Part shown: positions 15,834-51,887 of the stretch, piece after piece
Layout: the number at the start of each line of letters is the position of its first letter
Position numbering within the stretch: the first letter of the stretch is position 1
Assembly (NCBI RefSeq): GCF_009765975.1
Contig: NZ_LMUJ01000030.1
Coordinates: 74,912-126,798 of the forward strand
DNA: 51,887 nt
Reading direction: 5' to 3'
From: Acidisphaera sp. S103
Lineage (GTDB): Bacteria; Pseudomonadota; Alphaproteobacteria; Acetobacterales; Acetobacteraceae
Made by a program: the position numbers and the translations under genes
The notes under the pieces: generated by a model
The model's database searches: none
What the model saw: only the letters and a program-made list of their open reading frames with translations
Told to the model about the DNA's origin: nothing

Positions 15834-15864
15834 GGCAGCGTTTGGTGCCACGCGGGGTTGTGAT

Positions 15865-16419: not shown

Positions 16420-16437
16420 CAAGCTGGAACCCTTTTT

Positions 16438-17862: not shown

Positions 17863-17984
17863 GGGCGATCGTGGCACTGGCGGTGGTCCTGGGGTTGCTG
17901 GTGGCGTGCGGCAAGAAAGGCCCGCCCGACCCGCCCGGACCAAAAGAGAAGATCATCTATCCGAAGAGTTATCCAACGCACTGA
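17859..17984 (+). CDS. lptM: LptM-like small lipoprotein (YifL family)
   Basis: 41 codons, ATG 17859 overlapping the argH stop (ATGA). The peptide is a hydrophobic signal ending in the lipobox LLVAC, followed by [16 protein letters not shown], the CGxKGPLxxP signature of LptM/YifL. In E. coli LptM is an outer-membrane lipoprotein that binds the LptD-LptE complex and promotes LptD disulphide maturation. Location behind argH is the usual alphaproteobacterial place (often followed by lysA, which is absent here and replaced by a lactonase gene). Called on motif plus context. Confidence 0.82.
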
Positions 17985-18000
17985 AATCAAGGAAACGCCC

Positions 18001-27999: not shown

Positions 28000-28734
28000 A
28001 TGAAAGCCATTCTCGAGGCCCTGGCGCTGCCGCCCACAATTTTCGTCGTCCTGATCACGGCCGGCCTGCTGCTAGGCGGCCGGTGGCAACGGCCTGGCCG
28101 CTGGCTGACGTGGGCGTCGCTGATCGCGCTGATCCTATTCGGCATGCCGGCGGTTTCGGGCAGCCTGCTTCTGGCCCTGGAAACCGGCCTGCCCATGACC
28201 CCCCCGGCCGACCATCCGCCGCAGGCCATCGTCGTCCTCAGCGCCGAGTATACCCGCTCCAGCGACGACGCACTGGGTTACAGGCCGGGCCTGCTCTCGC
28301 TCGACCGGTTGCGCACCGCCGCCGCGCTGCATCGGCGCACCGGCCTGCCGATCCTGGTCAGTGGCGGTGTCGGTCAGGCCGGGGCGCCGGCGTTGGCGAT
28401 CGTCTTGGCGCAAAGCCTGAAGGATGATTTGCAAACCCCGGCCCGCTGGACCGAAGCAAGATCCAAAGACACCTGGCAGAATGCCCGCTTCAGCGCCGAA
28501 ATCCTGCGCGCCAACGGCATCTCCTCCATCTATCTCGTCACCCATTCCTGGCATATGCGGCGCGCCCTGGTGGCGTTCCGGGCTACCGGACTGACGGTGA
28601 CCGCCGCCCCCACCGCGCTGGATGAGCCACTCGGACCGGATCTGGATGATTTTCTACCCCGAGCGGCCGGCTGGCAGACTGGCTACTTCGCCATGCACGA
28701 ATGGATCGGGTATGCGTGGTACGAACTGCCCTGA
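28000..28734 (+). CDS. YdcF/ElyC (DUF218) family membrane protein
   Basis: 244 residues, ATG 28000. Two N-terminal transmembrane helices (about 8-26 and 38-55) then the DUF218 domain: AIVVLSAEYTRS, LLSLDRLRTAAALHRRTGLP, ILVSGGVGQ, the conserved SKDTWQNARFSAEIL and VTHSWHMRRALVAFRATG. ElyC-type proteins influence envelope polysaccharide/lipid-carrier metabolism in E. coli. Its 3' end overlaps the next gene by 23 bp. Periplasmic placement of the catalytic domain is inferred from topology. Confidence 0.88.
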   Translation: MKAILEALALPPTIFVVLITAGLLLGGRWQRPGRWLTWASLIALILFGMPAVSGSLLLALETGLPMTPPADHPPQAIVVLSAEYTRSSDDALGYRPGLLSLDRLRTAAALHRRTGLPILVSGGVGQAGAPALAIVLAQSLKDDLQTPARWTEARSKDTWQNARFSAEILRANGISSIYLVTHSWHMRRALVAFRATGLTVTAAPTALDEPLGPDLDDFLPRAAGWQTGYFAMHEWIGYAWYELP

Positions 28735-29764
28735 AACCTTCGCCTCGGTCGCGGCATTGCCGCCCGACGCCCTGGCCTTGCTCGACAACGCCCCCGGCCT
28801 TTTCGCCGGACGCGCCTGGTGGGATGTCGTGCAGTCGCACGCGATACCGGCCGGAAGCGAGCCATTATTCGTCACCATTCGCACCGAAGGCCGGGTTGTC
28901 GCGATGCTGCCGATGTTGCGAACCGGCAGCCGGCTGAGCAGCCTGACCACGCCCTATACTTGCGAATACATGCCGCTGCTCTCGGCCGGACTCAGTCAAT
29001 CCGCGCGAATCGCCGCCATGACTGCATTCGGCGCACTATGCCGAGGCCGGGGAAGCGTCCGGCTCGATGCGTTGCCCGCCGAATGGGTTTACCTGAGCGA
29101 CCTGGAGACCGGCGTGCGCGAGGCCGGTCTGCGCGTCCTGCGCTTCGATCATTTCGGCAACTGGCACGAGGATGTCGCCACCCTGGACTGGTCCGGCTAC
29201 CTGGTCGGGCGGCCTGGCGCCCTGCGTGAAACCATCCGCCGCCGCCTGCGGCGCGCCGAGAAACTGCCGGACGCGCGGTTCGACCTGTTCACCCAGCCAG
29301 CCCAGATGGACCAGGCCGTGGAAGCGTTCGAATCCGTCTATAGCCGAAGCTGGAAGGATGCCGAACCCTTCCCGACCTTCAACGCCGCGCTGATCCGCAG
29401 CACGGCCGCACTCGGTTTGCTGCGACTCGGAGTCTGGTCGATCGGCAGCCAGCCTGCCGCGGTGCAGTTCTGGGTGGTGAGGGACGGCCGCGCCATCGTG
29501 TTGAAACTGGCGCATGATGAGGCGTTCAAGGCGCACTCACCCGGCACCGTGCTGACCGCGCTGATGGTGCGGCATCTGTTGGACCAGGAGCATGTGGCAG
29601 CGATTGATTTCGGCCGCGGGGACGACGCCTACAAGCAAGGCTGGGCAACAAGGCGCCGGCAACGCATCGGGATGCTGCTGGTCAATCCGTGGCGGATGGC
29701 TGGGGCAATGGATCTTCTGCGCCATACCGCCGGGCGGGTTCGCGCGGCGGTAACCCGGCGTTGA
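28712..29764 (+). CDS. FemAB/CelD-like GNAT acyltransferase
   Basis: 350 residues from ATG 28712 (GGATCGGG upstream), overlapping the YdcF gene. Tandem GNAT fold of the BioF2/CelD type: LETGVREAGLRVLRFDHFGN, the loop ETIRRRLRRAEKL near residue 170, LLRLGVWSIGSQPAAVQFWV and IDFGRGDDAYKQGWATRRRQ. Such proteins are found in exopolysaccharide and exosortase loci and probably acylate sugars or lipid-linked oligosaccharides in the cytoplasm. A second, only distantly related member is at 32071-33198. Confidence 0.82.
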   Translation: MRGTNCPETFASVAALPPDALALLDNAPGLFAGRAWWDVVQSHAIPAGSEPLFVTIRTEGRVVAMLPMLRTGSRLSSLTTPYTCEYMPLLSAGLSQSARIAAMTAFGALCRGRGSVRLDALPAEWVYLSDLETGVREAGLRVLRFDHFGNWHEDVATLDWSGYLVGRPGALRETIRRRLRRAEKLPDARFDLFTQPAQMDQAVEAFESVYSRSWKDAEPFPTFNAALIRSTAALGLLRLGVWSIGSQPAAVQFWVVRDGRAIVLKLAHDEAFKAHSPGTVLTALMVRHLLDQEHVAAIDFGRGDDAYKQGWATRRRQRIGMLLVNPWRMAGAMDLLRHTAGRVRAAVTRR

Positions 29765-31813
29765 TCAGTCTTTTTGAGCGGCGCGCTTCCGGCGGCGGAA
29801 GCCGGCGAGCCCAGCCAGCCCGGCACCCAGCACGGCGAGTGACGTCGGTTCCGGCACGCTCGTCGCGGTCAGGGCGTAGGTGAAGTTCTCACCGTAGCCG
29901 CCAAGCCCGGTTCCTTCGTCGGTGAAGATCGTCAGGCTGGAACTCAGCGTCGAATACGGGATGTTGCTGGTCACCGTGATCGGCACCACCAGCATGCCGC
30001 CTTCGGTGATGACGGAAGACACCGAGGAGACGGAGAAAGCCGACGCATTCGCGCCGGTGATCGAATACGCGTCGATCGTCAGGTTGGTCAGGTTGGCGTT
30101 GCCGCCATTGGCGTCGGTGGTGACGTTCCCCAGATCCAGAAGCAGGGTCGTAGCCACGTTATAGCTGACCACCCCGAAGCTGATCGTCGCCCCGGCGGCG
30201 CCCGCCGTGTGACCGGTGCCATTCACCGTTGGCGTGTTGACGCCCTTGCCCACCAGCGTGCTGGCATAGGTGGGGCCGACCGCCGACCCGGTCAGCGTGG
30301 CCGCAACCGACTGGCTCAAATTGGTTCCGGCCGAACTGCCATCGCTGAAAGTGATCGGATCGGTGACCGAGGTGCTACCGCGGCTGCTACCTGGCGTGTA
30401 GGTGTATCCCAGTGTCGATGTCGCGGTGGTGCCAAGCGCCGTGGGCGATGTGGCATTGCTGACCAGATTGATCGTCGCGGCCGAAGCGGCGAAGCCCCCG
30501 CTGGAGACCCCGGACACGCTTCCGTTCAGCGCAGTTTTCGCGCCGCTGCCGGCGAGGTTGCCATCGCCGATGTTCGCGACAACGAACGACCCGCTGACCG
30601 AGGAACCGGAACCGATACGGCCATACACCGTCGAGTTCGCAATCGATTGGATGGGCGCGACACCGGTGCCGGTCAACGTCGTGGTCTGGATCGACGCGAG
30701 GTTCTGGCCATTGGAAGAACCGTTCGACAGTGTCTCCACCACCATCGCGGAGGACGAACCGACCACTGTCGGTTTATAGGTGTAACTATAATTCGTCGAC
30801 GAGGTATCAGTCAGGTTGATCGATGCACCCGCCGTGGCCGCGAAGCCGCTGACGCTGCTCAGCGCGCCAACGCTACCCCGCAGATTGCTGATGGCCCCGG
30901 CACCGGACAGGTTGCCATTACCCGTGTTGCTGACATTGACCGTTGCCGTGGAACTCGATGTCACCAGCACATAGCCGGCGCTGGCGGACCCGGCGACAGA
31001 TGCCACTGGCGCCACGCCGGTGCCGCTGAGCGTCGTCACCACGGACGTCCCGACGTTTTTTGTCGTGCTGCCGTCAGTGAAAGTGGTGACCACCGTCGCC
31101 GACGCCGCCCCCGTGCTCGTCGGCGTGAATACATACCCATACGACGACGAACTGCTGCTTTGAGCAGACTTTGTGCTGTTGTCGGTCAGCGAAAAACTTG
31201 CTGTTCCCGTGCCCACGAAAACGGAGTTGCCCGAAGCACCGTAAGACCCATTCAGGTTGTAGGTCGAGCCAGATCCCGCCTCGTTGCCATTGCCGGTGTT
31301 GGCGACGCTCAGCGTTGCTGTTCCGCTTTGACCGACCAGCACAAAGCCACTGCCGACCACGGCGGTTGTCCCCGGGCCGGAAATCGTTGGCGCCACGCCC
31401 GTGCCAGTCAGCGTGATGGTCGCCGAACCTTCGTTGGTGCTGCCATGGATGTAGCTGGCGGTGAGGACGTCGCTGACCCCGCCGGTAACCGTCGGCGTGA
31501 AGGTGAACGCGGAAGAACTTATGGTAGCTGACGAGGCACTCGAGCCACTCGTAACCGTTTGGAAAACCGCGATACCGGAAAACTCCCCGGTCGCGCCGGT
31601 GATCGTCCCGAAACCTGGACGGGTGCTGATTCCTAAGCCGCTGATTGTCGCTTTATCCGTGACACTGGCGCTGGTCGTGGCCGGCGACGTCACGAGAACG
31701 TAACTTAGCGACTGCGTCCCGATCGTGGTCACGTCAGGCGTCGCACGCGCCTCATGCCCCTCCATCAGAAGCAGTGCCAGCAGAGAAGTCGCGGATGCCA
31801 GTGACGCTCTCAA
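29765..31813 (-). CDS. PEP-CTERM surface protein with four repeats
   Basis: 682 residues, starting at TTG 31813 (AGGTAGGG upstream). Sec signal with ALLLMEGHEARA cleavage. Four modules of about 110-130 residues each end in GTGVAP-type turns (TLTGTGVAP, TLSGTGVAP, TLTGTGVAP, TLTGSAVGP) preceded by a Y-x-F-T-P-T/Y-T-Y-x-P strand and SNGSS-like loops; this resembles choice-of-anchor/fibronectin-like surface repeats. The C-terminus VPEPTSLAVLGAGLAGLAGF plus RRRKR is a PEP-CTERM sorting signal, cleaved by an exosortase, none of which is in the window. Ser/Thr/Gly-rich with few charges; likely an exopolysaccharide-associated adhesin. Confidence 0.9.
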   Translation of the reverse strand: MRASLASATSLLALLLMEGHEARATPDVTTIGTQSLSYVLVTSPATTSASVTDKATISGLGISTRPGFGTITGATGEFSGIAVFQTVTSGSSASSATISSSAFTFTPTVTGGVSDVLTASYIHGSTNEGSATITLTGTGVAPTISGPGTTAVVGSGFVLVGQSGTATLSVANTGNGNEAGSGSTYNLNGSYGASGNSVFVGTGTASFSLTDNSTKSAQSSSSSSYGYVFTPTSTGAASATVVTTFTDGSTTKNVGTSVVTTLSGTGVAPVASVAGSASAGYVLVTSSSTATVNVSNTGNGNLSGAGAISNLRGSVGALSSVSGFAATAGASINLTDTSSTNYSYTYKPTVVGSSSAMVVETLSNGSSNGQNLASIQTTTLTGTGVAPIQSIANSTVYGRIGSGSSVSGSFVVANIGDGNLAGSGAKTALNGSVSGVSSGGFAASAATINLVSNATSPTALGTTATSTLGYTYTPGSSRGSTSVTDPITFSDGSSAGTNLSQSVAATLTGSAVGPTYASTLVGKGVNTPTVNGTGHTAGAAGATISFGVVSYNVATTLLLDLGNVTTDANGGNANLTNLTIDAYSITGANASAFSVSSVSSVITEGGMLVVPITVTSNIPYSTLSSSLTIFTDEGTGLGGYGENFTYALTATSVPEPTSLAVLGAGLAGLAGFRRRKRAAQKD

Positions 31814-32070
31814 AGCTTCAGCCCTACCTTTGTCCGTTTACATATCGTGCCGTTTGACGATACACAACTACTTTTTTATACATTCCATGCTCGCACCGCC
31901 GCGGCGAATTACGCATGCTTCATACCGTATATCGTAATATTTTATGTCGAATATCGACATATAACATCGTCATGCATTTTCTATGTTCGATATCGATATT
32001 TTTTGTTGTCAATTCGCTGAAGCGAGTCGTGCTATGCACACATCATGCCAGAACTCGAAACCTTTTGGTA
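31814..32070 (-). promoter_or_regulatory. AT-rich promoter region of the PEP-CTERM gene
   Basis: 257 bp with much lower GC than its surroundings, between the PEP-CTERM start and the end of the FemAB-like gene, both on the minus strand. It holds a perfect palindrome TATGTCG-AATAT-CGACATA (31943-31961) and a nearby related CGATATCGATATT, with several TAnnnT-like boxes. It presumably carries regulated promoter(s) for the surface protein. No coding seen. Confidence 0.55.
31943..31961. promoter_or_regulatory. Palindrome, 7-bp arms, candidate operator
   Basis: TATGTCG and CGACATA form a perfect inverted repeat around AATAT, 130 bp upstream of the PEP-CTERM start. Dimensions suit a dimeric helix-turn-helix regulator. 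The regulator is unknown. Confidence 0.5.
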
Positions 32071-33198
32071 TCAATTCGTTGGTGGGCGATTTATCTCAAT
32101 AACCGACGAAACTGTAAAATTTTCCGACACTGTCCCGGCTTTACCCACCCATCGCCGAGCCACCGCCAAGCCCGCCCGAAACAGCCGAATGGGCGACCAG
32201 AGAGGTCCCGCTTCCACCCAGACCTGCCGATATGCCCCATCGGCGAGGCTGCGTTTGTAACGGTCCTCCCCTACTAAAAAATCATAGATTTCAATCTCTT
32301 GATCCAATGCGAACTGAATGGCCCGGTAATGGCAGGTCAGGCCCGGTTTCGCCCGGGGCGCCGTCGCCCGGTAGGCGAAACCACTCTGATAGGCCAACAT
32401 TCTACCTTGGAAATGAAAATTATACAAAATACCGATGACAGCCCCATGACATGACACTTTCAGCAGCACCACCTCGCCACGTGGCATCCCTGCCGCGATC
32501 AGGTCCCGATGAAACCGACCAAAAAACGGCCGGGCAAAACTGCCAGGCCGCCCCCTGGCGGTCCACGCCGCTTGATGCAGCACCGCCATCTCCGCCAGCA
32601 TCGCGTGCCCCGCCGCCACCGACTCGGCCCGCTCCACCACAATCGACCCGTAAAACCGTTCCGACCGGCGGATCTGCTGGCGCGTGTTGGCGCTGCGCCC
32701 AGCCAGGTAATCCCCGCCCGCCGCCCGCAACGCGGCCAGGTCGACAAACGGCGCGGCCTGCGACCGCACAACCCGCATCAACCCCGCCGATCGCCCGACC
32801 GCGGCCAGCACCGAGTCGTCCATGCCCGACAGCACCAGGTCGTACCGGCCCGTCACCGCCCGCAGGCACAGTTCGGTCAGTTCCGCCTCCCGCCCCGCCT
32901 CGGTCAGCACCCCGTTCTGCTCGACATACGGACAATCCAGCTCCGCCGAACCGTTTTCATCCAGATACAGGACCGCCGGCCCGACAAGCCGGCGAACCCG
33001 GTTGAACAAGGCCAGCGCAACGGTCCGTCCGTCGTCGGTCGCCTCCACCAGAACCGGGTCAGCAAACCGCTCCGCCGCCAGGCAGCCAACCCAGGTCCAG
33101 CTTTGGAAGAACGACAGCGCCGCACGCTGTTCCAAATCCCGCCATCGACACCCCAATTCGGCGAAATCCGCCACGCCGGAAACCCGAACCACCGTCAC
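32071..33198 (-). CDS. FemAB/BioF2-like acyltransferase
   Basis: 375 residues from GTG 33198, whose GTGA overlaps the glycosyltransferase stop; GTG 33222 would add eight residues. GNAT-like tandem fold with AGRSANTRQQIRRSERFYGS, LHQAAWTARGRPGSFARPFF, GAVIGILYNFHFQGRMLAYQ and YDFLVGEDRYKRSLADG, the signature of BioF2-type acetyltransferases in exopolysaccharide clusters (CelD/FemAB group). Cytoplasmic. Coupling to a GT4 enzyme supports acylation of the glycan that enzyme builds. Confidence 0.84.
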   Translation of the reverse strand: MTVVRVSGVADFAELGCRWRDLEQRAALSFFQSWTWVGCLAAERFADPVLVEATDDGRTVALALFNRVRRLVGPAVLYLDENGSAELDCPYVEQNGVLTEAGREAELTELCLRAVTGRYDLVLSGMDDSVLAAVGRSAGLMRVVRSQAAPFVDLAALRAAGGDYLAGRSANTRQQIRRSERFYGSIVVERAESVAAGHAMLAEMAVLHQAAWTARGRPGSFARPFFGRFHRDLIAAGMPRGEVVLLKVSCHGAVIGILYNFHFQGRMLAYQSGFAYRATAPRAKPGLTCHYRAIQFALDQEIEIYDFLVGEDRYKRSLADGAYRQVWVEAGPLWSPIRLFRAGLAVARRWVGKAGTVSENFTVSSVIEINRPPTN

Positions 33199-34295
33199 GG
33201 CGCCGCGGCCCCCCCGCGCCACAGCGCGCCATGCGTGGCGAACATCGCCGCCTGGTCGAAATCCCGCTCCGCCTTCGCCCGGTTGTCCGATCCGATTCGC
33301 CGCCGCGCCGCGGGGTCGGCGGCCAACCCCGCCAGCGCACTTGCCAGCGCCGCATCGTCCAGGCCGGTGACAAGGGGCGCGTTGGCCTCCGCCACCATCA
33401 GCCGCACGTCACCGACATCCGTCGAGACAACCGGCAGCCCGCTTGCCATCGCCTCGATCACCGAAAGCGGCATCTGCTCGGTGTCCGACGACAAGGCGAA
33501 GATGTCGAACGTCGCATAGAACGCGGCGGTATCCTGGTGATGGCCGGCGAAGCGCACTCGGTCCGCCACGCCCAGCGACACCGCCAGCGCCTCCAGCGCC
33601 GGACGCTCCGGCCCGTCGCCGACAATGACCAGCCGGCCCGCCGGCAGCAGGGCGAACGCACGCAGCAGCCGGGAGATATTCTTCTCCGCCCGCAAAGCCG
33701 CGATGGTGCCAATGACCGGTTCGCCGGTTCCCCGCTTTGTGCCGTCCGTCACAAACCGAGCCAGGTCGATTCCGTTCGGCACGTAGCGGATCACCCGGGG
33801 CGGCAGTTTCCAGACCTCGGTCGCGATGCGCACCAGGTTGCGGGATGGCATGACGACCGGCGTCCGGCCCAGCGCGATCCTCCGTATCAACACGCGACGC
33901 CGAATCTGGGTGTTGCGTTCCTCCGGCCCGAACCCGTCCACGACATGCATGTGACGGGTGACCGGCACGATGTTGGCCAGTGAGAACTCGATCGCGCCCC
34001 AGTTGCAGGTGACCAGCACATCCGGCCGCCAGCGTCGCAGCAGCAGCCGGTAATGCCAGGCATTCGACAGCATGGCGTTCTTGGCCGCCGCGACCGCCGG
34101 AAACGTCACGTCCAGGCCGGGATCCAGCCGTTCCCGGCACGCCAGGTTGCCGTCCAGGGAGACCACGATGTGGCGGAACGCCGAACCAAAATGGTTGGCG
34201 ACGGCGGCGAAACGCACTTGTGCGCCACCCACCGCGAAGGTCGGGAATACGTGGACGACCAACGGTGCCGCTGTCTGTCCGGTTGCCAGTTTCAC
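33195..34295 (-). CDS. Family GT4 glycosyltransferase
   Basis: 366 residues from GTG 34295, which has GAGGAAAG eight bases upstream; ATG 34331 is an alternative. GT-B fold: N-terminal HVFPTFAVGGAQVRFAAVAN acceptor loop, RYVPNGIDLARF, then GTIAALRAEKNISRLLRAFA, VIVGDGPERPALEALA and the donor-binding E-x7-E region SSDTEQMPLSVIEAMASGLP. It adds a sugar to a lipid-linked or polymer acceptor at the inner membrane. Divergent from the beta-helix protein, starts only 38 bp apart; translationally coupled with the FemAB-like gene. Confidence 0.91.
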   Translation of the reverse strand: MKLATGQTAAPLVVHVFPTFAVGGAQVRFAAVANHFGSAFRHIVVSLDGNLACRERLDPGLDVTFPAVAAAKNAMLSNAWHYRLLLRRWRPDVLVTCNWGAIEFSLANIVPVTRHMHVVDGFGPEERNTQIRRRVLIRRIALGRTPVVMPSRNLVRIATEVWKLPPRVIRYVPNGIDLARFVTDGTKRGTGEPVIGTIAALRAEKNISRLLRAFALLPAGRLVIVGDGPERPALEALAVSLGVADRVRFAGHHQDTAAFYATFDIFALSSDTEQMPLSVIEAMASGLPVVSTDVGDVRLMVAEANAPLVTGLDDAALASALAGLAADPAARRRIGSDNRAKAERDFDQAAMFATHGALWRGGAAAP

Positions 34296-34333
34296 CTTGA
34301 CTTTCCTCAGGCCTTCCGCCGACACGACCATCG

Positions 34334-35269
34334 ATGACCTGGTCCTGGCATACCGCAATCGCTTTCGGCACCGCAATGCTTTGCGCCCTGCTTCCCCCCT
34401 TGCCCGCCAACGCTCGCGATCTATCGGTCGGCCGAACCCGGCTGCTGAAAGTGCCGAGCCAGGCCGCCACGATCGCCGCCGATGGCGATGTTGTCCGTAT
34501 CGATCCCGGCGTCTACACGGATTGCGCGATCTGGAACGCCTCCCACCTGGTGATCGAGGCCACCGGACCCGGCGTCGTGATCGCCGGCAAAACCTGCGCC
34601 GAGATGGGCATCTTCGTCACCCAAGGCGACGACATCACGGTCCGAGGCATCACCTTCGCCGACGCCTCCGTCATCTGGCACAACGGCGCCGGCATCCGCG
34701 CGGCCGGCGACAACCTGACGGTCGAGCACAGCCGCTTCCTGCATAACGAAAACGGCATCCTGGCCGGCGGCGGTCCCGACAGCGTGGTGCGGATCAGCGA
34801 CAGCACGTTCATCGGCAACGGCACCTGCATCGGGCGGTGCGCGCATGGCATCTATGCCGGCGCGCCGATCGCCCTGCTGGAGATCGACCACAGCGTCTTC
34901 CTGGACACCAAGGTTGGCCACCACATCAAGTCGCGGGCCCGCAACACCGTCATACGCGACAATCGCGTCGAGGACGGACCGACCGGCACCGCCAGCTACC
35001 TGATCGACATTCCCAACGGCGGCAACGTGCTGATCCAGGGCAACACCATGGAAAAAGGCGCCGGCAGCGAAAACCCCGCCGTCGCGATCTCCATCGGCGA
35101 GGAGGGCATGAAAAACCCCACCTCGGTGCTGATCGTTGAAGACAACGTTTTCCACAATGACGAGCCGACGCGCACCATCTTCGTCCGCGACAGCACGCCG
35201 ACGCCGGTCGAGATGTCCGGCAACACCATCACCGGCGACGTCGAACTTCCCGCCGAACCGTCAAAGTAG
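34334..35269 (+). CDS. Secreted right-handed beta-helix protein
   Basis: 311 residues with a Sec signal ending around PPLPANA (residue 26). The body repeats short coils of a parallel beta-helix: VRGITFADASVIWHNGAGI, LTVEHSRFLHNENGILAGG, VRISDSTFIGNGTCIGRCAH, VIRDNRVEDGPTGTASYLID and VLIQGNTMEKGAG. Such folds occur in polysaccharide lyases, epimerases (AlgG-like) and surface scaffolds. No catalytic triad is obvious. Divergent from the GT4 gene and probably acts on or holds the exported glycan in the periplasm. Confidence 0.85.
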   Translation: MTWSWHTAIAFGTAMLCALLPPLPANARDLSVGRTRLLKVPSQAATIAADGDVVRIDPGVYTDCAIWNASHLVIEATGPGVVIAGKTCAEMGIFVTQGDDITVRGITFADASVIWHNGAGIRAAGDNLTVEHSRFLHNENGILAGGGPDSVVRISDSTFIGNGTCIGRCAHGIYAGAPIALLEIDHSVFLDTKVGHHIKSRARNTVIRDNRVEDGPTGTASYLIDIPNGGNVLIQGNTMEKGAGSENPAVAISIGEEGMKNPTSVLIVEDNVFHNDEPTRTIFVRDSTPTPVEMSGNTITGDVELPAEPSK

Positions 35270-44619: not shown

Positions 44620-46005
44620 GTGGACTGCTGTATTGATATTGGGCATTTTTGCTCAGGCGATAAACCGTCCCATACAGGTGAATTTTTGGACGCGGCTTTT
44701 GTCTTTGGAACCTTGGGAAATCTTTCGGCCGCCCTCGGCGCCGGGTGGTCGTCCGAGGAGGCGTTTAGTTGGGCCATTGGCGCCGAAAGCGAACTGACGC
44801 TGCCTTTGCAGGGCGACAGCCTGCCCACCATCCTGCGGTTCGACCTTCATCCCGCGATCTACCCACCAAAGATCGCCTGCCAACGGCTGATGATCCGAGC
44901 CGGCAAAATCGTGCTGGGATCGTTCGAGATCACGGCTCGGCAGACCCTTGTCATCCCGCTGCCGGCGGAACTGACCAGCGGCGCGGAACGCCTGGAACTC
45001 ACGCTGGTTCATCCCGATGCCGTCCGGCCGCGCGATCATCTTCCGATCGATGATTCGCGACGCCTGACGTTATGCTTTCATTCGGCCAGTCTGGAGCGAC
45101 CCGGACCGGACGGTGCTGGAGTGTCCTCGGCCGCGGAACCGGCAATGCTGGAGCTGGTTCACGGGGTAATCGCCGGCGACAGCACGGCGATGCGCATGGC
45201 CGAGGTGATCGGCAAGCTGCCCAGCCTGAGAGGCCGATTCGGCATCCGTTTCCTGGATCTGTCGAAGCCGTTGGATCAGGCGGTGGAACGCCTGCCACCG
45301 GAAACCCTGGAGACGATGCGGTTCTGCTGGATCCAATTGAATGCCGGCATATCGGAGAGGCGCGATTCGCTGCGCCAGCGTCTGGCCGCCGATTGCGTCC
45401 TGCGCACGTATTATGCGCCGATCATCCACGCGTTCTGGCCGTTCCAGGGACCGGATCCCAGGGCGGTGCCTGAACCGGGGCGTTACGATCCGTCGCGATA
45501 TCCCTATGGTGACCGGCTCGCCCGGGCGCTCGCCGCGATGAACCTGCCCGACGACGTCACTTATCTGATGTATGAAATGTCGGCTGGCCAAGAGGCGCTG
45601 GACTTTGAGGAGATCTTCGCCAACGACCTTCGCCGGTGGCGGGCCGAAGGCCGGAAATCCGACCTGCAGCTCGCGAATTTTATCGAGGACCACCTGAGCA
45701 CCAGCCGTCTTTTCATCGCCCCCAACCGGGTGGGACCGGTGTTGCTGCGGGAAATGGTCGGCCAGGTCCTTGACGATGGCCTGGTGCGCGATATCGCGAC
45801 ACCGGAAACGCTGGCGGCCGAACTCGATGCTCTGCTGGATGGCTACGCCGGCTGGCAGGAGGAAGTGCCTGTCCACAAGCGGGTCGCAGACCATTTCAAC
45901 CTGGCCTGGTGGTCGCCCGACATGAAATACCGCTGGGAGAACAACCTGCGCACTTACCGCGAGTATATTCTCGACTACATCAGATGGGTGCAGTGGCGGC
46001 CATGA
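44620..46005 (+). CDS. WcbI-like protein with N-terminal beta-sandwich domain, motif lost
   Basis: 461 residues; GTG 44620 gives the longest form and the true start is uncertain. Residues about 40-155 are a beta-rich module (ESELTLPLQGDSLPTILRFD, IACQRLMIRAGKIVLGSFEI, RLELTLVHPDAVRPRD) that recurs in the DUF1796-like protein at 48670-49776. The C-terminal half is the WcbI polysaccharide-biosynthesis acetyltransferase fold: IIHAFWPFQGPDPR, RLFIAPNRVGPVLLREMVGQ and YREYILDYIRWVQW align with the neighbour 46002-46850. The motif N-C-Q-G that should follow the first strand is replaced by IQLNAGISERRDS, so it may be a non-catalytic partner. Stop overlaps the next start. Confidence 0.8.
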   Translation: MDCCIDIGHFCSGDKPSHTGEFLDAAFVFGTLGNLSAALGAGWSSEEAFSWAIGAESELTLPLQGDSLPTILRFDLHPAIYPPKIACQRLMIRAGKIVLGSFEITARQTLVIPLPAELTSGAERLELTLVHPDAVRPRDHLPIDDSRRLTLCFHSASLERPGPDGAGVSSAAEPAMLELVHGVIAGDSTAMRMAEVIGKLPSLRGRFGIRFLDLSKPLDQAVERLPPETLETMRFCWIQLNAGISERRDSLRQRLAADCVLRTYYAPIIHAFWPFQGPDPRAVPEPGRYDPSRYPYGDRLARALAAMNLPDDVTYLMYEMSAGQEALDFEEIFANDLRRWRAEGRKSDLQLANFIEDHLSTSRLFIAPNRVGPVLLREMVGQVLDDGLVRDIATPETLAAELDALLDGYAGWQEEVPVHKRVADHFNLAWWSPDMKYRWENNLRTYREYILDYIRWVQWRP

Positions 46006-46850
46006 GCCATTCGATCCTGATCTACGCGAACTGCCAGGGTGAAGAACTGCAGAAGACCGGCCGCTTCATGCAATGCATGGCCGGGCGGCTGAACTTCAAG
46101 TGGATCCCGTTTCACCTTGTGACCGAACGCGACTGGGCCAGGACATACGGCCAGGACTTCATGACCGACGTGGTGACGGTGTGGGAGCAGGTGGAGACCG
46201 GCGGGCTGTCGTCGAACCGCGCGACCTTGCATGAACGACTCCCGAAGAATGTGCCCATCGTGACCTTTCCGCCGTTCACCGCGACCTGCCTATGGCCATT
46301 CGCCGGCAACGATCCACGCGTCGCGCGCGATCCGGACCGGTATCCGTGGCCGGATTCAATCGCCGCGGTCCTGTCGACCGAAGATCTGCCCGATGATGAA
46401 CTGTTCGAGAAATATCTCCGCGTCACCGCCGAACGCATGCCCGATCTCGACCGGCGGTTGCGCCTGGACATCGCGCGCTGGAAAGCCGCCGATGCCATCG
46501 CCGACATTCCGCTATCCGAATGGGTGGAGAAGACATTCCAGACGGTGAGTCTGTTCCATACCAGCGGGCACATCACCGCACCCGCCGTCGGGTATCTGAT
46601 GAAGCAACTGTTGAACCGCACCACCATCCTTCCCCCCGCACTCGCCCGGGCCGCGATCGGCGATGTCGATATCCTGTTACGCCGGCACACCGGGCAGAAT
46701 TTTGAGTGCGTGCCGATCCACCCGCTGGTGGCCGAACGACTGAACCTTCGCTTCTACGATCCGGACGCGACATATCGCTGGCATGCGCATGAGTGGACGT
46801 TCCGGCAATACATACTGCACTACATTCGTTGGGCGGATTATCTGGTGTAG
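46002..46850 (+). CDS. WcbI-family polysaccharide acyltransferase
   Basis: 282 residues, ATG 46002 overlapping the preceding stop (ATGA). The signature ILIYANCQGEELQKTG at residues 4-19 is the nucleotide/CoA-binding start of WcbI, which in Burkholderia capsule loci binds CoA and is thought to acetylate the capsule. FTATCLWPFAGNDPRVARDP, FHTSGHITAPAVGYLMKQ and WTFRQYILHYIRWADYLV follow. Likely cytoplasmic. With the degenerate neighbour it is a tandem paralogue pair. Confidence 0.84.
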   Translation: MSHSILIYANCQGEELQKTGRFMQCMAGRLNFKWIPFHLVTERDWARTYGQDFMTDVVTVWEQVETGGLSSNRATLHERLPKNVPIVTFPPFTATCLWPFAGNDPRVARDPDRYPWPDSIAAVLSTEDLPDDELFEKYLRVTAERMPDLDRRLRLDIARWKAADAIADIPLSEWVEKTFQTVSLFHTSGHITAPAVGYLMKQLLNRTTILPPALARAAIGDVDILLRRHTGQNFECVPIHPLVAERLNLRFYDPDATYRWHAHEWTFRQYILHYIRWADYLV

Positions 46851-46956
46851 GATTGCCTGTTATGGCCAGGCTGCTCTAGCCTGCCTGGAACATGGCGCCG
46901 GTCGGCGGCTGTGAAAAACGGCTCCGGTACCGGTGCCGGATAAATCAGGAGGTTAC

Positions 46957-48303
46957 GTGACCAGTCAGGCAAAGAAAGTATCCCGTCGGCGCACCTTGAA
47001 GCTGGCGGCGGCATCCGCAACGCTTCCATTGGTCCATATCCGGACGGGTCGGGCCGCGGGCAAGGTCTCGATCGGCTTCTGGGATCACTGGGTTCCGGAA
47101 GGCAACGAAATCATGAAGAAGCAATGCGAGGCATTTGGCGCCGCGCATCAGGTGGAGGTGCAAGCCGATTTCATCACCTCGGTCGGGTCGAAGAATATCC
47201 TGACGATAGCGGCTGAAGCGCAAGCCAAGACCGGACATGACGTTCAGCAATTTCCTGAGTGGGAGGTGCAGAACCACGCCGATCAGCTCGAGCCGATCGA
47301 TGATGTGATGAAGCGACTGACAGACAAATATGGTCCCGTGGCCGCCGCGAGCCAATATTTGTTCAATATCAAGGGGCATTGGTTGGCGGTGCCAAGCAGC
47401 GCCGGCAATCAAAACAAGGGTCCATGCGGCCGCATCTCTGTCCTGAAGGACGTTGCGGGACTGGACATCGTGAAGATGTATCCCTCCGGCGCCGATGCCA
47501 CGCCGGACGCCGACAACTGGACATACGACACGCTGCTGAAGGTTGCCGAGGCCTGCAAAAAGGCCAACATGACCGTCGCCGTCGGGCTCGGCACCACGCC
47601 CGATTCCGTCGATACGGCCGGATCGATGTTCGCCGCGTTCGGGGCTGATCTCATCAGCGCGAAAGGCGATATCAACGTTCACACCGACAATGTGCGCCAA
47701 GTGCTCGAATACGCCCAGCAACTGGTCAAATACCTGCCCGAGGATGCGGTCAGCTTCGATGACGCATCGAACAATCGCGCGCTGATCTCGGGCAAAAGCG
47801 CGCTGATCTGGAATCCACCCTCGGCCTGGGCTGTCGCCAAACGCGATGCCCCCAAAGTGGCCGCGGATTGCTGGACATTCCCCGCGCCCAAAGGTCCCAA
47901 AGGGCGGTTCCTGCCGCTGGGCGCATTTTCCTGGGGTGTGTGGAATTTCAGCGCCAATAAGGCAGCCGCGAAAGACCTGATCGAGTTCTTGTCGCAGCGG
48001 GAAAATGTCGAAGCGCGGTGTACCGTAACCCAGGGTTATGATGTCCCGCCATTTGCCAGCATGACGGACTTCAAGATCTGGGCTGAAGTCGAGCCCCCCC
48101 GAGGCACCGTTTACCACTACCCGATCCGCAAGTCGCATCATCAGGAGAATTGGATCGCGATGGCCCCTGCCCCACCGGAGATCGCGGTGCAGGCTTACAA
48201 CCGTGGCACGCTGCCAACGATGCTGGCCAAACTGCAAAGCGGGCAGTCCATCAAGGAAGTACAGGATTGGGCGCAAGACGAGCTTGAAGGCTTTACCCGC
48301 TGA
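46957..48303 (+). CDS. Tat-exported extracellular solute-binding protein
   Basis: 448 residues from GTG 46957 with AGGAGG five bases upstream. Tat signal SRRRTLKLAAASATLPLVHI then cleavage near GRAAG. The mature part is a family 1 (sugar-type) binding protein: VSIGFWDHWVPEGNEIMKKQ, HDVQQFPEWEVQNHADQLEP, DSVDTAGSMFAAFGADLISA and WNPPSAWAVAKRDAPK. No ABC permease or ATPase gene is in the window, so it is an orphan, perhaps working with a distant transporter or holding a glycan fragment. Followed by a hairpin (48343-48373) that isolates it from the acyl carrier protein gene. Confidence 0.88.
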   Translation: MTSQAKKVSRRRTLKLAAASATLPLVHIRTGRAAGKVSIGFWDHWVPEGNEIMKKQCEAFGAAHQVEVQADFITSVGSKNILTIAAEAQAKTGHDVQQFPEWEVQNHADQLEPIDDVMKRLTDKYGPVAAASQYLFNIKGHWLAVPSSAGNQNKGPCGRISVLKDVAGLDIVKMYPSGADATPDADNWTYDTLLKVAEACKKANMTVAVGLGTTPDSVDTAGSMFAAFGADLISAKGDINVHTDNVRQVLEYAQQLVKYLPEDAVSFDDASNNRALISGKSALIWNPPSAWAVAKRDAPKVAADCWTFPAPKGPKGRFLPLGAFSWGVWNFSANKAAAKDLIEFLSQRENVEARCTVTQGYDVPPFASMTDFKIWAEVEPPRGTVYHYPIRKSHHQENWIAMAPAPPEIAVQAYNRGTLPTMLAKLQSGQSIKEVQDWAQDELEGFTR

Positions 48304-48342
48304 GTTCGGCTTGATCGGCGTTTCCGCATCCGGCGAATGGGG

Positions 48343-48373
48343 CCAACCGGCGAGCCGGCATAACGCCGGTTGG
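48343..48373 (+). terminator. Perfect 10-bp hairpin after the binding-protein gene
   Basis: CCAACCGGCG (48343-48352) and CGCCGGTTGG (48364-48373) pair completely, 11-base loop, 40 bp downstream of the stop codon. No T-run follows; probable terminator or mRNA stabiliser. Confidence 0.6.
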
Positions 48374-48434
48374 TACGAATTCCAGTGCGGATTAGGCGAA
48401 ATCCGCTGCTTTCCGCGTGAAAAGGAATGATCGT

Positions 48435-48668
48435 ATGGCGGAAGATTCACTGCTGATCTTGATCGCGGGGACCCTGGGGATCGATCCGTCGGAGGTGACC
48501 GATAACTCCGACATGTCCAACACGCGCAAATGGGACAGTCTCCGGCAGATCATGCTGATGACCGAACTGGAAACACATTTCGGCTGCGAACTCAGCGACC
48601 AGCAGATGCTGGAAACGACTTCGGTGGCGAAAATCCGTGCGCTGCTGGCCCGTCAAGGTGTGGGCTGA
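48435..48668 (+). CDS. Acyl carrier protein
   Basis: 77 residues from ATG 48435 (AAAGGAAT upstream; GTG 48417 is also possible). Four-helix carrier fold: LLILIAGTLGIDPSEVTDNS, then the phosphopantetheine attachment site KWDSLRQIMLM with Ser near residue 36 and LETHFGCELSDQQML. It is the D-S-L type rather than fatty-acid AcpP (no fab genes near), as used in modification pathways. Convergent with the DUF1796-like gene; FkbH-type protein lies 1.2 kb away. Confidence 0.9.
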   Translation: MAEDSLLILIAGTLGIDPSEVTDNSDMSNTRKWDSLRQIMLMTELETHFGCELSDQQMLETTSVAKIRALLARQGVG

Positions 48669-48669
48669 C

Positions 48670-49776
48670 TCAGTCGCCGATCAGCGAGATACGATAGAAC
48701 GCCACCGCGAGGCGCCGGTCGTCATTCTGTCCGGTGGCCGCGCGCGGGCTGGTCGCCGCGGGGTGATCCAGCACGATCTCGACCCTATCCCGGCCGTGCA
48801 ACAGATGAGCCGGGACCGCGCAATCAACCTTGCCACGCGGCAGCGGATCGAAGGTGTGAATCAGTTGGCCGTTGACGGTGACACCCAGCGGCTGTGCCGC
48901 GAGCGCGGGTGAGGCGACGAAGGGAACGACTTCCATTTCGAGCCGGTAGCTGTGCGCCGCCGCAGGTTTCGCCATGGTCAGGACGCTGCGCTGATCGATC
49001 GACCATGTGAAGCCGTTTTCGGGACCCGACCACCCGTCGCCTTGGCAGGCGGCTGCATTGCCCTCGTGTCCAAACACCGTGTCGATACGCCTTGGCGGCG
49101 ATGCGGCCGTCGTCGCCTCGGCCGGAACGGTGGAGCGGATCGCATGGGCTTCGCGCAGCATTGTCAGCCAGGAGGGAAGATCGAAATCCGGTGCGTTGTC
49201 CCGCCGAGCCAATCGGGTCACGTAGCCGATCATCAGCGTGTCGTCGACGATCGTCACGGTGCCGGGGGGATGACCGGACCGGGTCGCCTGCACCCAAAGC
49301 AGGGTGGCGGGACCATAGGCGGACAGCGCCGCGCGAAAGTCCAGCAGGTCGTTCGCCGACACGTCCTCATTCTGGCGAAAAACCATGATTTTTTCGGGCT
49401 TTTCAAGATCGGCAATCAACTTGTCGATCAAAAAGCGAACGTTTCGGACCTGCTGCCGATGCAGCACCGCGGGGTCGGCTTCGCCAATTTTCACGTGGGC
49501 ATGATAGATAAAATCGTATTTGGTCAGCTTGATCATGTATTCGCTGTTCTCGGGCTGAACACGGACATGTTCGGGGTCCGCCATGCCTGCGAACCGTGCT
49601 GCCATCGCCCGTGTCAGGTGCCGCACGGGGGCGCCGGCGAACCGGAACATGCCAAGCGGTTCGGCCCCGACCCGGCGTTGCACAAGGCCCAGTTCACAAC
49701 TGTCGCCCAGGCTCTCGAACTGAAGGACAAGGTCTCGATCGGACAGTGGTGATTCAACCGGGATGTCGATACTCAT
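48670..49776 (-). CDS. DUF1796-like protein with C-terminal beta-sandwich domain
   Basis: 368 residues from ATG 49776. Residues 14-220 begin LQFESLGDSCELGLVQRRVG (an S-L-G-x-x-C motif as in DUF1796, a putative papain-like cysteine peptidase family) and later have YDFIYHAHVKIGE with histidines. Residues about 250-365 (GFTWSIDQRSVLTMAKP, YRLEMEVVPFVASPALAAQP, GRDRVEIVLDHPAATSPR, NDDRRLAVAFYRISL) match the extra module of the WcbI-like protein at 44620. Role unknown; the shared module suggests the same glycan or partner. Divergent from fkbH-type gene by 142 bp. Confidence 0.7.
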   Translation of the reverse strand: MSIDIPVESPLSDRDLVLQFESLGDSCELGLVQRRVGAEPLGMFRFAGAPVRHLTRAMAARFAGMADPEHVRVQPENSEYMIKLTKYDFIYHAHVKIGEADPAVLHRQQVRNVRFLIDKLIADLEKPEKIMVFRQNEDVSANDLLDFRAALSAYGPATLLWVQATRSGHPPGTVTIVDDTLMIGYVTRLARRDNAPDFDLPSWLTMLREAHAIRSTVPAEATTAASPPRRIDTVFGHEGNAAACQGDGWSGPENGFTWSIDQRSVLTMAKPAAAHSYRLEMEVVPFVASPALAAQPLGVTVNGQLIHTFDPLPRGKVDCAVPAHLLHGRDRVEIVLDHPAATSPRAATGQNDDRRLAVAFYRISLIGD

Positions 49777-49918
49777 CGTGCGATCTGGACCCTCTGCCGT
49801 GCGCCGCCTGGGCCGTTTATAGTCGGCTGGCGCGATTTCCCACAACGAACACTGTCTGCGACCGAGGATGGATTGTAGGATGGGATGAAATCGTCGTGCG
49901 GAAGGATTTAGCGACCCT

Positions 49919-51733
49919 ATGCTTGATCGTCCAACGTCCACAGCCACGTTCCTGTCGAGCCTTGGGTTTGGCGACAAGCCCGCTACCCTGCCGTCGATTT
50001 TCCAGGCAGGGGACCGGATTTTCGACGCTGCCGCCGAACCGTCCGCGATCCCGGGCGGCACGACGATGCAGCTCATTGCTGTCGTGGGGGCGCTTACCAT
50101 CGATTACCTGGCGCGGGCGATCGCCTGCTCGGTTGTACAGGAAGGGGTTTTTCCCTTTGTTTACCAGGCACCGTTTGGTTCGTACGTGCAAGAGGTGCTC
50201 GATCCCGGATCCGGCCTGCATGGTTTTGGTCCCGAACTTGTGGTCATCGCGCCGGACTGGCGCGACATGGTCGTATCGCTGCCGGTCGATGCCTCCGCCC
50301 GCGACGTCGACGCGGCGCTGGCATCGAAGGTGGGGCTGTTGCAGGCGATGTGGGGACAGCTTGCCGGAAAGGATGTGAAGGTCATTCAGCATGTGCTGGT
50401 TCCGCCGGCCTGGCGCTATCGCGGGGTGGCGGAACGGCTGGCACCGGCTTCACCGGCGAACCAAATCCGGCGGTTGAATGAGATGCTGCTGGAGGCGGGG
50501 CGTGGCCTCGTCACCTGGGTCGATATGGACGCGCTGGCGCGGGAAATCGGCACGCGGCGGTTTGCGCCGGCGAAGTTCCACCATGCCGCCAGGCTGGACC
50601 ACGACCCGAAATTTCTGCCGGATTACCTGCCGCTGTTCCGCTCGGCCTGGCGGTCCGCCAATGCCCGCGCCAAGAAGGTGCTTGTGCTCGATCTCGACAA
50701 CACGCTGTGGGGTGGCGTGATCGGCGATGATGGTGTCGAGGGCATCGCGCTCGGTTCGGAGTCCCCGGCCGGTGAGGCGTTCGCGGATTGGCAGCGTTAT
50801 GTCAAGGCATTGGGCGAGCGGGGGGTAATTCTTGCTGTTTGCTCGAAGAACGATCCAGCGGTGGCCGCTGCGGGGTTCGAGCATCCACATTCCGTTCTTC
50901 GGCGATCGGACTTTTCCGCGTTCGAATGCTCCTGGAACGACAAAGTCGCTGGCTTGCGGCGGATAGCCCGCGACTTGAACGTCGGTATCGACAGTTTTGT
51001 CTTCTGTGACGACAATCCGGCGGAATGCAACCTGGTGCAGCGGGAATTGCCCGAGGTGGCGGTGGTCTGCCTGGGTGCCGATCCAGCCGCGTTCGTCGAT
51101 CTGTTCGACGCGGGGCATTGGCTGGACACCGATCATTACACGCGGGAGGACCTGGGGCGTGCCGCCGCCTATACCGCGCGCGCCGCGGCGTTGGCGGAGC
51201 AGGCGGAGGCAACCGATTTCGCCGGCTATCTGGCCGGTCTGGGGATGAAGGGGTCCTTGCAGCGGCCACGCGAAGCCGATATCGCCCGGGTCGCACAATT
51301 GGAACTGAAGACCAATCAGTTCAACGTCACGACCCGACGTCACAGCGAAGCGGCGATCAGGGGCTTCCTGGATCGGAACGATGCGATTGTATTGGCGTTC
51401 CGTCTGGCGGATCGTTTCGGCGATCACGGGCTGACATCGACATTGGTGGCGTTCCACGAAGGCGACACAGTCCGGATCGATAGCTGGCTGATGAGCTGCC
51501 GGATTTTCTCGCGTTCGGCGGAGCAGTTCATGATGCACGGCCTGATCGCGATCGCAGCGGAATTAGGGGCAAAACGCCTGCTCGGTGAGTATCTGCCAAC
51601 GCCGAAGAACGGCGTGGTCGAGGATCTTTACCCCCGACTTGGGTTCGCCTCGGCGGAAGGATCGTTCTTCATCAGGGACATCGGCGGGCCGATCGACAAT
51701 CTGGTTACATACGTAACCGATTCGCCGGTATGA
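49919..51733 (+). CDS. FkbH-family HAD-IIIC phosphatase/acyltransferase
   Basis: 604 residues, three parts. Residues 50-250: SGNH-like domain. About 250-400: HAD-IIIC domain with VLVLDLDNTLWGGVIGDDG (nucleophile Asp near 257), VCSKNDPAV and FVFCDDNPAECNLV. 430-600: GNAT-like domain ending GEYLPTPKNGVVEDLYPRLG, with LKTNQFNVTTRRHSEAAI typical of FkbH. Known FkbH proteins dephosphorylate 1,3-bisphosphoglycerate and load the glyceryl group on an acyl carrier protein for polyketides; relatives occur in surface glycan loci. The nearby carrier protein at 48435 is the natural partner. ATG 49919 has AAGGA about 14 bases upstream. Confidence 0.86.
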   Translation: MLDRPTSTATFLSSLGFGDKPATLPSIFQAGDRIFDAAAEPSAIPGGTTMQLIAVVGALTIDYLARAIACSVVQEGVFPFVYQAPFGSYVQEVLDPGSGLHGFGPELVVIAPDWRDMVVSLPVDASARDVDAALASKVGLLQAMWGQLAGKDVKVIQHVLVPPAWRYRGVAERLAPASPANQIRRLNEMLLEAGRGLVTWVDMDALAREIGTRRFAPAKFHHAARLDHDPKFLPDYLPLFRSAWRSANARAKKVLVLDLDNTLWGGVIGDDGVEGIALGSESPAGEAFADWQRYVKALGERGVILAVCSKNDPAVAAAGFEHPHSVLRRSDFSAFECSWNDKVAGLRRIARDLNVGIDSFVFCDDNPAECNLVQRELPEVAVVCLGADPAAFVDLFDAGHWLDTDHYTREDLGRAAAYTARAAALAEQAEATDFAGYLAGLGMKGSLQRPREADIARVAQLELKTNQFNVTTRRHSEAAIRGFLDRNDAIVLAFRLADRFGDHGLTSTLVAFHEGDTVRIDSWLMSCRIFSRSAEQFMMHGLIAIAAELGAKRLLGEYLPTPKNGVVEDLYPRLGFASAEGSFFIRDIGGPIDNLVTYVTDSPV

Positions 51734-51763: not shown

Positions 51764-51887
51764 GATAGGGGTCGGGAAGTTTCCTCCCCGACCTCCGAAC
51801 CGTGCGTGCGGTTTTCCCGCACACGGCTCTCCAGTCGCTGGTTTCCTCATCGGGGGTGTCTCGCGTCTTCACAGGCTGTAACCAGGG
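51764..51887 (-). mobile_element. Group II intron, 3' end (partial)
   Basis: Read on the minus strand, GAGCCGTGTGCGGGAAAACC followed by GCACGCACGGTTC (51797-51829) is a domain V hairpin: AGC triad, bulged lower stem, apical GAAA. Next is a domain VI-like stem of 10 bp (51784-51793 with 51770-51779, one G-U pair) with a GAAA loop; the intron would end near CCCCTATC at 51764. Thus the intron and its reverse transcriptase lie to the right, outside the window, pointing left. No bulged branch-point A is obvious in the stem, so domain VI may be altered or folded otherwise. Confidence 0.75.

What the first reader, a model, noticed from the sequence alone, without database searches (positions are those of the whole stretch)
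44620..51733. Candidate carrier-protein-dependent glycan decoration locus (WcbI, WcbI, SBP, ACP, DUF1796-like, FkbH)
FkbH enzymes load glyceryl units onto an acyl carrier protein; WcbI proteins act on capsules; both, plus a free D-S-L type carrier protein, occur together here with no polyketide or fatty-acid synthase. I infer a pathway in which FkbH charges the carrier and a WcbI protein transfers glyceryl/acyl groups to a surface glycan. I know of no described system with exactly this gene set.
Basis: partly seen in the sequence, partly recalled or inferred. Interest (0 to 1): 0.78.

Follow-up and report, generated by a model that had tools for sequence, protein, structure and literature searches.

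The report
Carrier-loaded glyceryl module with WcbI pair
A bacterium carries a small gene set that probably loads a glycerol-derived acid onto a carrier protein and hands it to a pair of capsule-type enzymes for attachment to a surface sugar polymer, which would give that enzyme family the partner it has lacked.

Summary
The genes are real and at the stated places, with corrections. The conserved unit is W1 and W2 (two WcbI-family proteins, 4-base overlap), a carrier protein (ACP), D1796 and FkbH; it recurs at one site in a Rhodopila-like genus. WcbI, ACP and FkbH also sit together in one Ramlibacter and one Eremiobacterota MAG. The solute-binding gene is a passenger. The name DUF1796 has no Pfam support.

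New here: (1) ACP lies within 200 bases of FkbH in 38 of 40 fetched Acetobacteraceae FkbH stretches. (2) In 17 tandem WcbI pairs the first copy never has the active-site Cys or His; the second keeps Cys in 16. (3) W1 and D1796 share a domain that folds like carbohydrate-binding modules and is reshuffled with WcbI elsewhere. (4) No ketosynthase is near the window-type cassettes checked by profile, bar one FabF-sized hit 12.6 kb away; but one other FkbH of the genus lies beside a PKS.

Most likely FkbH makes glyceryl-ACP, and W2 with W1 moves the group to a glycan. The transfer is inferred. The contig ends 154 bases after FkbH at a group II intron, so the right flank is unknown.

The parts
44686..46005 (+). 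W1: N-terminal CBM-like beta-sandwich plus a WcbI domain without the active-site Cys and His; start uncertain (TTG 44686 or GTG 44620)
46002..46850 (+). W2: WcbI domain that keeps the NCQ Cys and the GHIT His; presumed acyltransferase
   Evidence: PF18588 E 9e-15; Cys and His align with residues 14 and 201 of WcbI 4bqn in a profile match (roles of Cys14 and His201 from PMC4104973)
46933..48303 (+). Solute-binding protein (SBP_bac_8/SBP_bac_1), a passenger between W2 and ACP
   Evidence: not found in the relatives' loci; W2 and ACP only 42-94 bases apart by profile ends in seven relatives' loci; orthologues of 75-88% on other contigs in five relatives
48435..48668 (+). ACP: free carrier protein with KWDSL motif (ORF listed from 48417)
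   Evidence: PF00550 E 5.5e-8; genus homologues of 77-79 aa
48670..49776 (-). D1796: unnamed N-terminal domain (DN) plus the same CBM-like beta-sandwich; convergent with ACP
49919..51733 (+). FkbH: presumed glyceryl-ACP loading enzyme (start may be 49919 or 50066)
   Evidence: TIGR01686 E 1e-75; DLDNT.WGG, CSKN and DDNP stretches shared with PDB 3slr; start candidates
51765..51831 (-). Group II intron 3' end (Rfam Intron_gpII) near the contig end; not part of the unit
   Evidence: RF00029 57 bits, E 2.8e-9; six further copies of the contig-end sequence in the genome

Best explanation
A glycan-decoration module driven by a free carrier protein. Step 1 (from family knowledge): FkbH takes the phosphoglyceryl group of 1,3-bisphosphoglycerate, removes the phosphate and leaves a D-glyceryl thioester on the ACP. 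Step 2 (inferred): the glyceryl-ACP arm enters the CoA cleft of W2, whose Cys and His match Cys14 and His201 of WcbI, and W2 moves the glyceryl group to a hydroxyl or amine of a sugar. Step 3 (inferred): W1, a WcbI domain without these residues but with a CBM-like domain, is the partner that binds and presents the glycan and completes the active site. D1796 shares the CBM-like domain and works on the same glycan; its own chemistry is unknown. The logic resembles Dlt (recalled): loader, small carrier, acyltransferase, surface polymer.
For: FkbH and ACP are a tight module: ACP within 200 bases on the same strand in 38 of 40 fetched stretches, within 2.5 kb in 54 of 58 (the 58 include the 40, and two overlap, L058 and L069). 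WcbI linkage in 9 of 36 genomes with both, expected 0.44 (contig ends and kinship ignored). In an FkbH tree the window's clade has 17 rows, 12 labelled WcbI-linked, including the Ramlibacter (L040) and Eremiobacterota (L043) MAGs. In 17 tandem pairs the first copy has the Cys in 0 and the His in 0; the second copies and 4 singles together have Cys in 20 of 21 and His in 17 of 21. Shuffled fusions in the frames counted: sandwich-WcbI 10, DN-sandwich 10, sandwich-DN 10, DN-WcbI 1, WcbI-sandwich-DN 1 (near-copies and a degraded locus included). Glycosyltransferases near FkbH in L037, L052, L055, L083 and L005; an MBOAT cluster in 9 loci (one member checked in Pfam). WcbI binds CoA, had no detectable acetyltransferase activity, and its authors proposed a partner (PMC4104973).
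Against: No experiment. WcbI was solved with CoA, and no ACP-WcbI contact is known to me. 0 of 40 fetched FkbH stretches had WcbI by local profile (that of G384 lies just outside the cut), so FkbH-ACP does not need WcbI. G016 has ACP, D1796 and FkbH at the site but no WcbI there (a pair lies elsewhere). In the phylum sample no other linked genome. An FkbH of G025 lies by a PKS-sized ketosynthase frame. In G001 and G003 a second FkbH/WcbI locus has a tandem ketosynthase pair about 5 kb away. The window's cassette has no glycosyltransferase and the acceptor is unknown. His is Arg in 3 and Tyr in 1 of 21 second-copy or single sequences. Three first copies have a Cys 3-4 columns off. The Ramlibacter and Eremiobacterota cases are single MAGs.
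Confidence: 0.48

Rival explanations
1. Same glycan, separate enzymes: the WcbI pair is a CoA-dependent acetyltransferase, and glyceryl-ACP is used by some other transferase. The genes sit together only because they decorate one polymer.
For: WcbI was crystallised with CoA and stabilised by CoA in melting tests; the 40 fetched FkbH stretches lack WcbI by local profile and must use another transferase, MBOAT in some.
Against: WcbI/ACP/FkbH recurs in three distant groups, and no other acyltransferase was seen among the neighbours scanned there, which were only part of each locus; in seven of nine genus stretches W2 and ACP are 42-94 bases apart by profile ends (the other two did not hold both).
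Confidence: 0.25
2. A protein-linked glycan is the acceptor: the module modifies a glycosylated surface protein or flagellin, as with the di-O-methylglyceric acid derivative on Campylobacter flagellin.
For: Campylobacter has an FkbH-domain gene, cj1302, in its flagellin glycosylation locus (PMC7099621, one passage) and a minor di-O-methylglyceric acid derivative on flagellin (PMC3958885, one passage); TylF-type methyltransferases stand beside WcbI/ACP/FkbH in L040 and L055; the genome's other FkbH-ACP lies by a TibC/GT9-type glycosyltransferase.
Against: No flagellin or surface-protein gene and no methyltransferase among the cassette genes.
Confidence: 0.13
3. Part of secondary metabolism: glyceryl-ACP feeds a polyketide made elsewhere in the genome or to the right of the contig end.
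For: In the FkbH paper whose passages I saw, FkbH and a free ACP serve a polyketide (PMC7489565). The genome has ketosynthase hits in frames of 1123-7909 aa on C113 and C83. G025:C86 has an FkbH about 1.6 kb from a ketosynthase in a 3485-aa frame. The right flank is unknown.
Against: By profile, no ketosynthase on C79 or C98 and none near 12 of 13 window-type FkbH places, the exception being a 461-aa FabF-sized frame 12.6 kb off in G033. The motif scan gave 0 of 58 and 0 of 9, but found only 3 of 6 known ketosynthases in a control and missed the pairs in L060 and L061, so it is weak. No dehydrogenase pair or O-methyltransferase of the methoxymalonate route in the cassette.
Confidence: 0.1
4. 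Chance or old synteny: the genes are neighbours without a common task.
For: The genus copies sit at one site beside the same dehydrogenase and hydrolase genes.
Against: The dehydrogenase is present (73% identity or more) in 14 of the 15 same-genus genomes that lack the FkbH orthologue, so the cassette comes and goes; linkage recurs outside the genus.
Confidence: 0.04

Closest known systems
WcbI of the Burkholderia capsule locus (PF18588; PDB 4bqn/4bqo)
   Different: Here WcbI is a pair of degenerate plus intact copies, with a CBM-like domain on the first, next to a carrier protein and FkbH. The main text of the WcbI paper has 0 occurrences of 'acyl carrier' (I read section 20, part 1 of section 13 and passages).
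FkbH and free ACP of tetronate and methoxymalonate pathways (for example Mad7/Mad8, PMC7489565, passages)
   Same: FkbH-family protein with its own free ACP.
   Different: No PKS, FabH-like closing enzyme, dehydrogenase pair or O-methyltransferase in the cassette; WcbI instead.
D-alanylation of teichoic acids (Dlt); from recall, no call
   Same: Logic of loader, small carrier protein, acyltransferase, surface polymer; some FkbH-ACP loci have an MBOAT gene.
   Different: The loader is FkbH, not an adenylating ligase; no MBOAT among the cassette genes.
Flagellin glycosylation islands with carrier proteins (PMC4875605, passages) and Campylobacter cj1302 (PMC7099621, passage)
   Same: Carrier proteins or an FkbH-domain gene in glycan loci.
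   Different: No flagellin genes here; the passages seen do not mention WcbI.

Membership tests
FkbH (TIGR01686) | Profile score over the curated cut-off | tested here: met
   254.9 bits against 146.65
FkbH (TIGR01686) | HAD-type motifs | tested here: met
   DLDNTLWGG; DDNP aligned to 3slr
FkbH (TIGR01686) | Forms glyceryl-S-ACP from 1,3-bisphosphoglycerate | not testable with these tools
   needs an assay; route as described in PMC7489565 passages
Carrier protein (PF00550) | Profile over cut-off and Ser of the DSx motif | tested here: met
   33.4 bits against 20.8; KWDSL
WcbI (PF18588) | Profile over cut-off | tested here: met
   W1 36.8 and W2 55.3 bits against 29.2
WcbI (PF18588) | WcbI fold | tested here: met
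WcbI (PF18588) | Active-site Cys14 and His201 in W2 | tested here: met
WcbI (PF18588) | Active-site Cys14 and His201 in W1 | tested here: not met
   Ser and Arg at those columns; 0 of 17 first copies have either
DUF1796 (PF08795, accession recalled) | Profile match of D1796 | tested here: not met
   no Pfam family at E 0.01
Carbohydrate-binding module (CBM35/6/36 type) | Beta-sandwich fold | tested here: met
Carbohydrate-binding module (CBM35/6/36 type) | Sugar binding | not testable with these tools
   a shared fold shows no function; no Pfam CBM match
Methoxymalonyl-ACP pathway | Two dehydrogenases and an O-methyltransferase beside FkbH and ACP | tested here: not met
   not among the ten proteins scanned; the dehydrogenase next door is found in genus genomes without the cassette; right flank missing
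Dlt system | Adenylating ligase and MBOAT beside the carrier | tested here: not met
   neither among the ten proteins scanned at 40-51.7 kb; right flank missing

The most novel reading that the evidence does not exclude
The missing donor and partner of WcbI-family capsule enzymes are, at least in this branch, a glyceryl-loaded carrier protein and a catalytically dead WcbI sister with a glycan-binding domain: WcbI acts as a heterodimeric, carrier-protein-dependent acyltransferase, giving glycerate-decorated surface polymers.
Probability: 0.3. Interest if true: 0.75.

Novelty: new variant of a known kind. Interest (0 to 1): 0.6.

Why it matters
WcbI has a solved structure, binds CoA and is needed for a capsule, yet showed no activity alone, and its authors proposed an unidentified partner (PMC4104973). 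This locus offers a testable partner set: a dead WcbI sister with a glycan-binding-like domain, and a carrier protein with its own loading enzyme. It would also give FkbH chemistry, known from polyketides, a role in surface glycans, with a Dlt-like logic in Gram-negative bacteria.

Tried and rejected
SBP as a transport part of the unit: rejected. The divergent dehydrogenase as a supplier of glycerate: rejected, since it occurs in genus genomes without the cassette (the hydrolase beside it was not searched). DUF1796 by Pfam and NCBIfam: no match. PDB sequence relatives of W1, W2 and D1796 by single sequence: none of use; W2 reached WcbI only by a profile. Phylum-wide linkage: not found beyond the window (in G114 the two share a contig about 35 kb apart). 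A named CBM family: not claimed. The ketosynthase motif scan: kept only as weak evidence after a control found 3 of 6 and a profile search found what it had missed. After that check I raised the polyketide rival from 0.08 to 0.10 and lowered the main reading from 0.50 to 0.48.

Literature: ten searches. 'FkbH' with 'glyceric acid' and 'polysaccharide' (19), 'FkbH' with 'acyl carrier protein' and 'glycan' (24), and 'WcbI' with 'acyl carrier protein' (92) gave no paper in the held library. Subscription papers are mostly missing, so this is no proof of absence. Of the papers cited I saw: PMC4104973 section 20, part 1 of section 13 and passages; PMC7099621, PMC4875605, PMC7489565 and PMC3958885 passages only.
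Full report
What is there. The window is the right end of contig C79 of an 8.37 Mb draft genome of 116 contigs. In the scan of named genome contigs the closest FkbH relatives are in two Rhodopila MAGs, 79% and 72% identical. Reading from the left, the unit is W1 (44686-46005), W2 (46002-46850, 4-base overlap), a solute-binding gene (46933-48303), ACP (48435-48668), D1796 on the other strand (48670-49776) and FkbH (49919-51733). The contig ends 154 bases after FkbH; between lies the 3' end of a group II intron (RF00029, E 2.8e-9). Six other copies of this end sequence are in the genome, four of them starting at the first base of a contig, so the assembly very likely broke at this repeat. What lies to the right is unknown.

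Conservation in the genus. Of 32 same-genus genomes searched, seven have an FkbH orthologue of 69-79% identity (G001, G003, G009, G012, G016, G022, G023); G025 has a broken one and G028 a 47-residue fragment. G001, G003, G012, G022 and G023 show W1, W2, ACP, D1796 and FkbH at one site next to the same dehydrogenase and hydrolase (D1796 of G001 is split over two frames). G009 shows the set over two contig ends. G016 has ACP, D1796 and FkbH there but no WcbI. G025 has a degraded copy. D1796 lies downstream of FkbH in G012, and G023 has a second D1796 there. G022 carries in addition a glycosyltransferase and a weak GDSL-type match between ACP and D1796. The solute-binding gene had no hit in these loci, W2 and ACP being 42-94 bases apart by profile ends in the seven loci where both are seen (one of them degraded). 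Its orthologues of 75-88% lie on other contigs in G001, G003, G009, G016 and G023. It is a newcomer in the window's genome.

Wider co-occurrence. Acetobacteraceae, 220 genomes: WcbI in 56, FkbH in 86, both in 36 by my count of the two lists. In 9 of these 36 a WcbI and an FkbH lie within about 12 kb (G000, G001, G033, G316, G354, G379, G381, G384, G418). Phylum, 200 genomes: WcbI in 11, FkbH in 46, both in 8, linked only in the window. So linkage is strong in the family but not general. The scan of named genomes with FkbH gave ten loci. A Ramlibacter MAG (L040) has methyltransferases, WcbI, TylF, ACP and FkbH side by side, and an Eremiobacterota MAG (L043) has FkbH, ACP and a facing TPR-WcbI gene; each is a single MAG. 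G418 (L055) has the same order as L040; its ACP is seen by local profile only, Pfam giving no match at 0.001. L039, L041 and L042 have ACP and FkbH without WcbI; L038 has FkbH in two pieces and no ACP by profile.

FkbH-ACP as the core. I fetched 40 of the FkbH places listed, mostly top-scoring ones, so this is not a random draw. ACP lies within 200 bases on the same strand in 38 of 40; D1796-type N-terminal domains are near in 16, an MBOAT cluster in 8, a large multi-glycosyltransferase gene in 10, at least one of these three (or the sandwich) in 28, WcbI in 0. The local WcbI profiles miss divergent members: that of G379 (L059), 4.5 kb from FkbH by Pfam, was not seen, and that of G384 lies outside the cut. 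The genome's second FkbH (C98) has its own ACP and lies by a TibC/GT9-type glycosyltransferase and a Hint-domain protein.

Polyketide genes. My motif scan found no ketosynthase in 58 FkbH stretches or 9 genus stretches, but in a control it found only 3 of the 6 ketosynthases that the profile had located. A profile search of 17 genomes is the better test. For 12 of the 13 window-type FkbH places it covers (G001:C38, G003:C50, G009:C56, G012:C341, G016:C139, G022:C1, G023:C701, G025:C155, G354:C66, G418:C31 and the records of L040 and L043, the last two judged by coordinates) no ketosynthase is near; in G033 a 461-aa FabF-sized frame is 12.6 kb away. Against this, G025:C86 has another FkbH about 1.6 kb from a ketosynthase in a 3485-aa frame, and the second FkbH/WcbI loci of G001:C164 and G003:C168 have a tandem ketosynthase pair of 427-448 aa frames about 5 kb away. 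The window's genome has ketosynthase hits on other contigs, none on C79 or C98.

FkbH tree. 64 rows, quick method. The window's clade of 17 rows (support 100) holds 12 rows labelled WcbI-linked; 6 more lie in the other clade. The label needs 8 changes, shuffled mean 16. G009 was labelled by hand, and L059 was labelled without WcbI although Pfam finds one. Long branches are present, so deep joins are unsure.

Tandem WcbI pairs. In 17 pairs, not all of them beside FkbH and many from related genomes, the first copy has neither the Cys of the NCQ motif nor the GHIT His (0 of 17 each). The second copy has the Cys in 16 of 17, the exception being in L061, where FkbH is also broken. With 4 single copies the Cys is kept in 20 of 21 and the His in 17 of 21, Arg in 3 and Tyr in 1. 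Three first copies have a Cys 3-4 columns away. The profile match to PDB 4bqn places the two residues on Cys14 and His201, which contact the acetyl-CoA in the crystal (PMC4104973).

Mechanism. FkbH proteins are described as loading glyceryl from 1,3-bisphosphoglycerate onto a free ACP (PMC7489565 passages, where it is itself a prediction for that cluster). WcbI binds CoA, whose pantetheine arm an ACP also bears; it had no detectable acetyltransferase activity, and its authors proposed a binding partner. I infer that glyceryl-ACP supplies the arm, W2 the catalytic residues and W1 the partner and acceptor-binding part. The Dlt comparison is from recall. The transfer, the acceptor and the role of D1796 are not shown.

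Other surroundings. Twenty further proteins of the window were scanned: two-component regulators, a dihydrouridine synthase, a PEP-CTERM protein between two GNAT (PF13480) genes with a GT1-type glycosyltransferase at 28.6-34.4 kb, and metabolic enzymes. No ketosynthase was among them.

Verdict.

Noticed in passing
window 51765-51831 (-): Group II intron 3' end near the contig end; six further copies of the end sequence in the genome, four starting at the first base of a contig.
   Followed up: partly
window 28622-34376: A PEP-CTERM protein gene flanked by two GNAT genes (PF13480) and a GT1-type glycosyltransferase, possibly an exopolysaccharide or exosortase-related island.
   Followed up: no
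L005 (G000:C98:184000-203999), 9212-14337: The genome's second FkbH with its own ACP, next to a Hint-domain protein and a TibC/GT9-type glycosyltransferase.
   Followed up: partly
L073, L074, L080, L086, L093, L098, L100: A recurring set of FkbH, ACP, a gene of the MBOAT cluster and an unknown gene of about 354 aa, Dlt-like in outline; one member of each of the last two was scanned, and the 354-aa one has no Pfam match.
   Followed up: partly
L058 (G384:C321:1-20000), 101-3670: One long frame holds WcbI, TPR repeats, the CBM-like sandwich and the D1796 N-terminal domain.
   Followed up: partly
L060 (G003:C168) 14886-18143 and G001:C164:13770-15563: A tandem ketosynthase pair, in L060 with its own carrier protein, about 5 kb from the second FkbH/WcbI locus; perhaps the lipid A long-chain acyl genes (recalled, not tested).
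   Followed up: no
G025:C86:18234-22233: An FkbH about 1.6 kb from a ketosynthase in a 3485-aa frame, so one FkbH of this genus may serve a polyketide.
   Followed up: no
G000 contigs C113 and C83: Ketosynthase hits in frames of 1123-7909 aa, probably modular PKS, unlinked to the window.
   Followed up: partly
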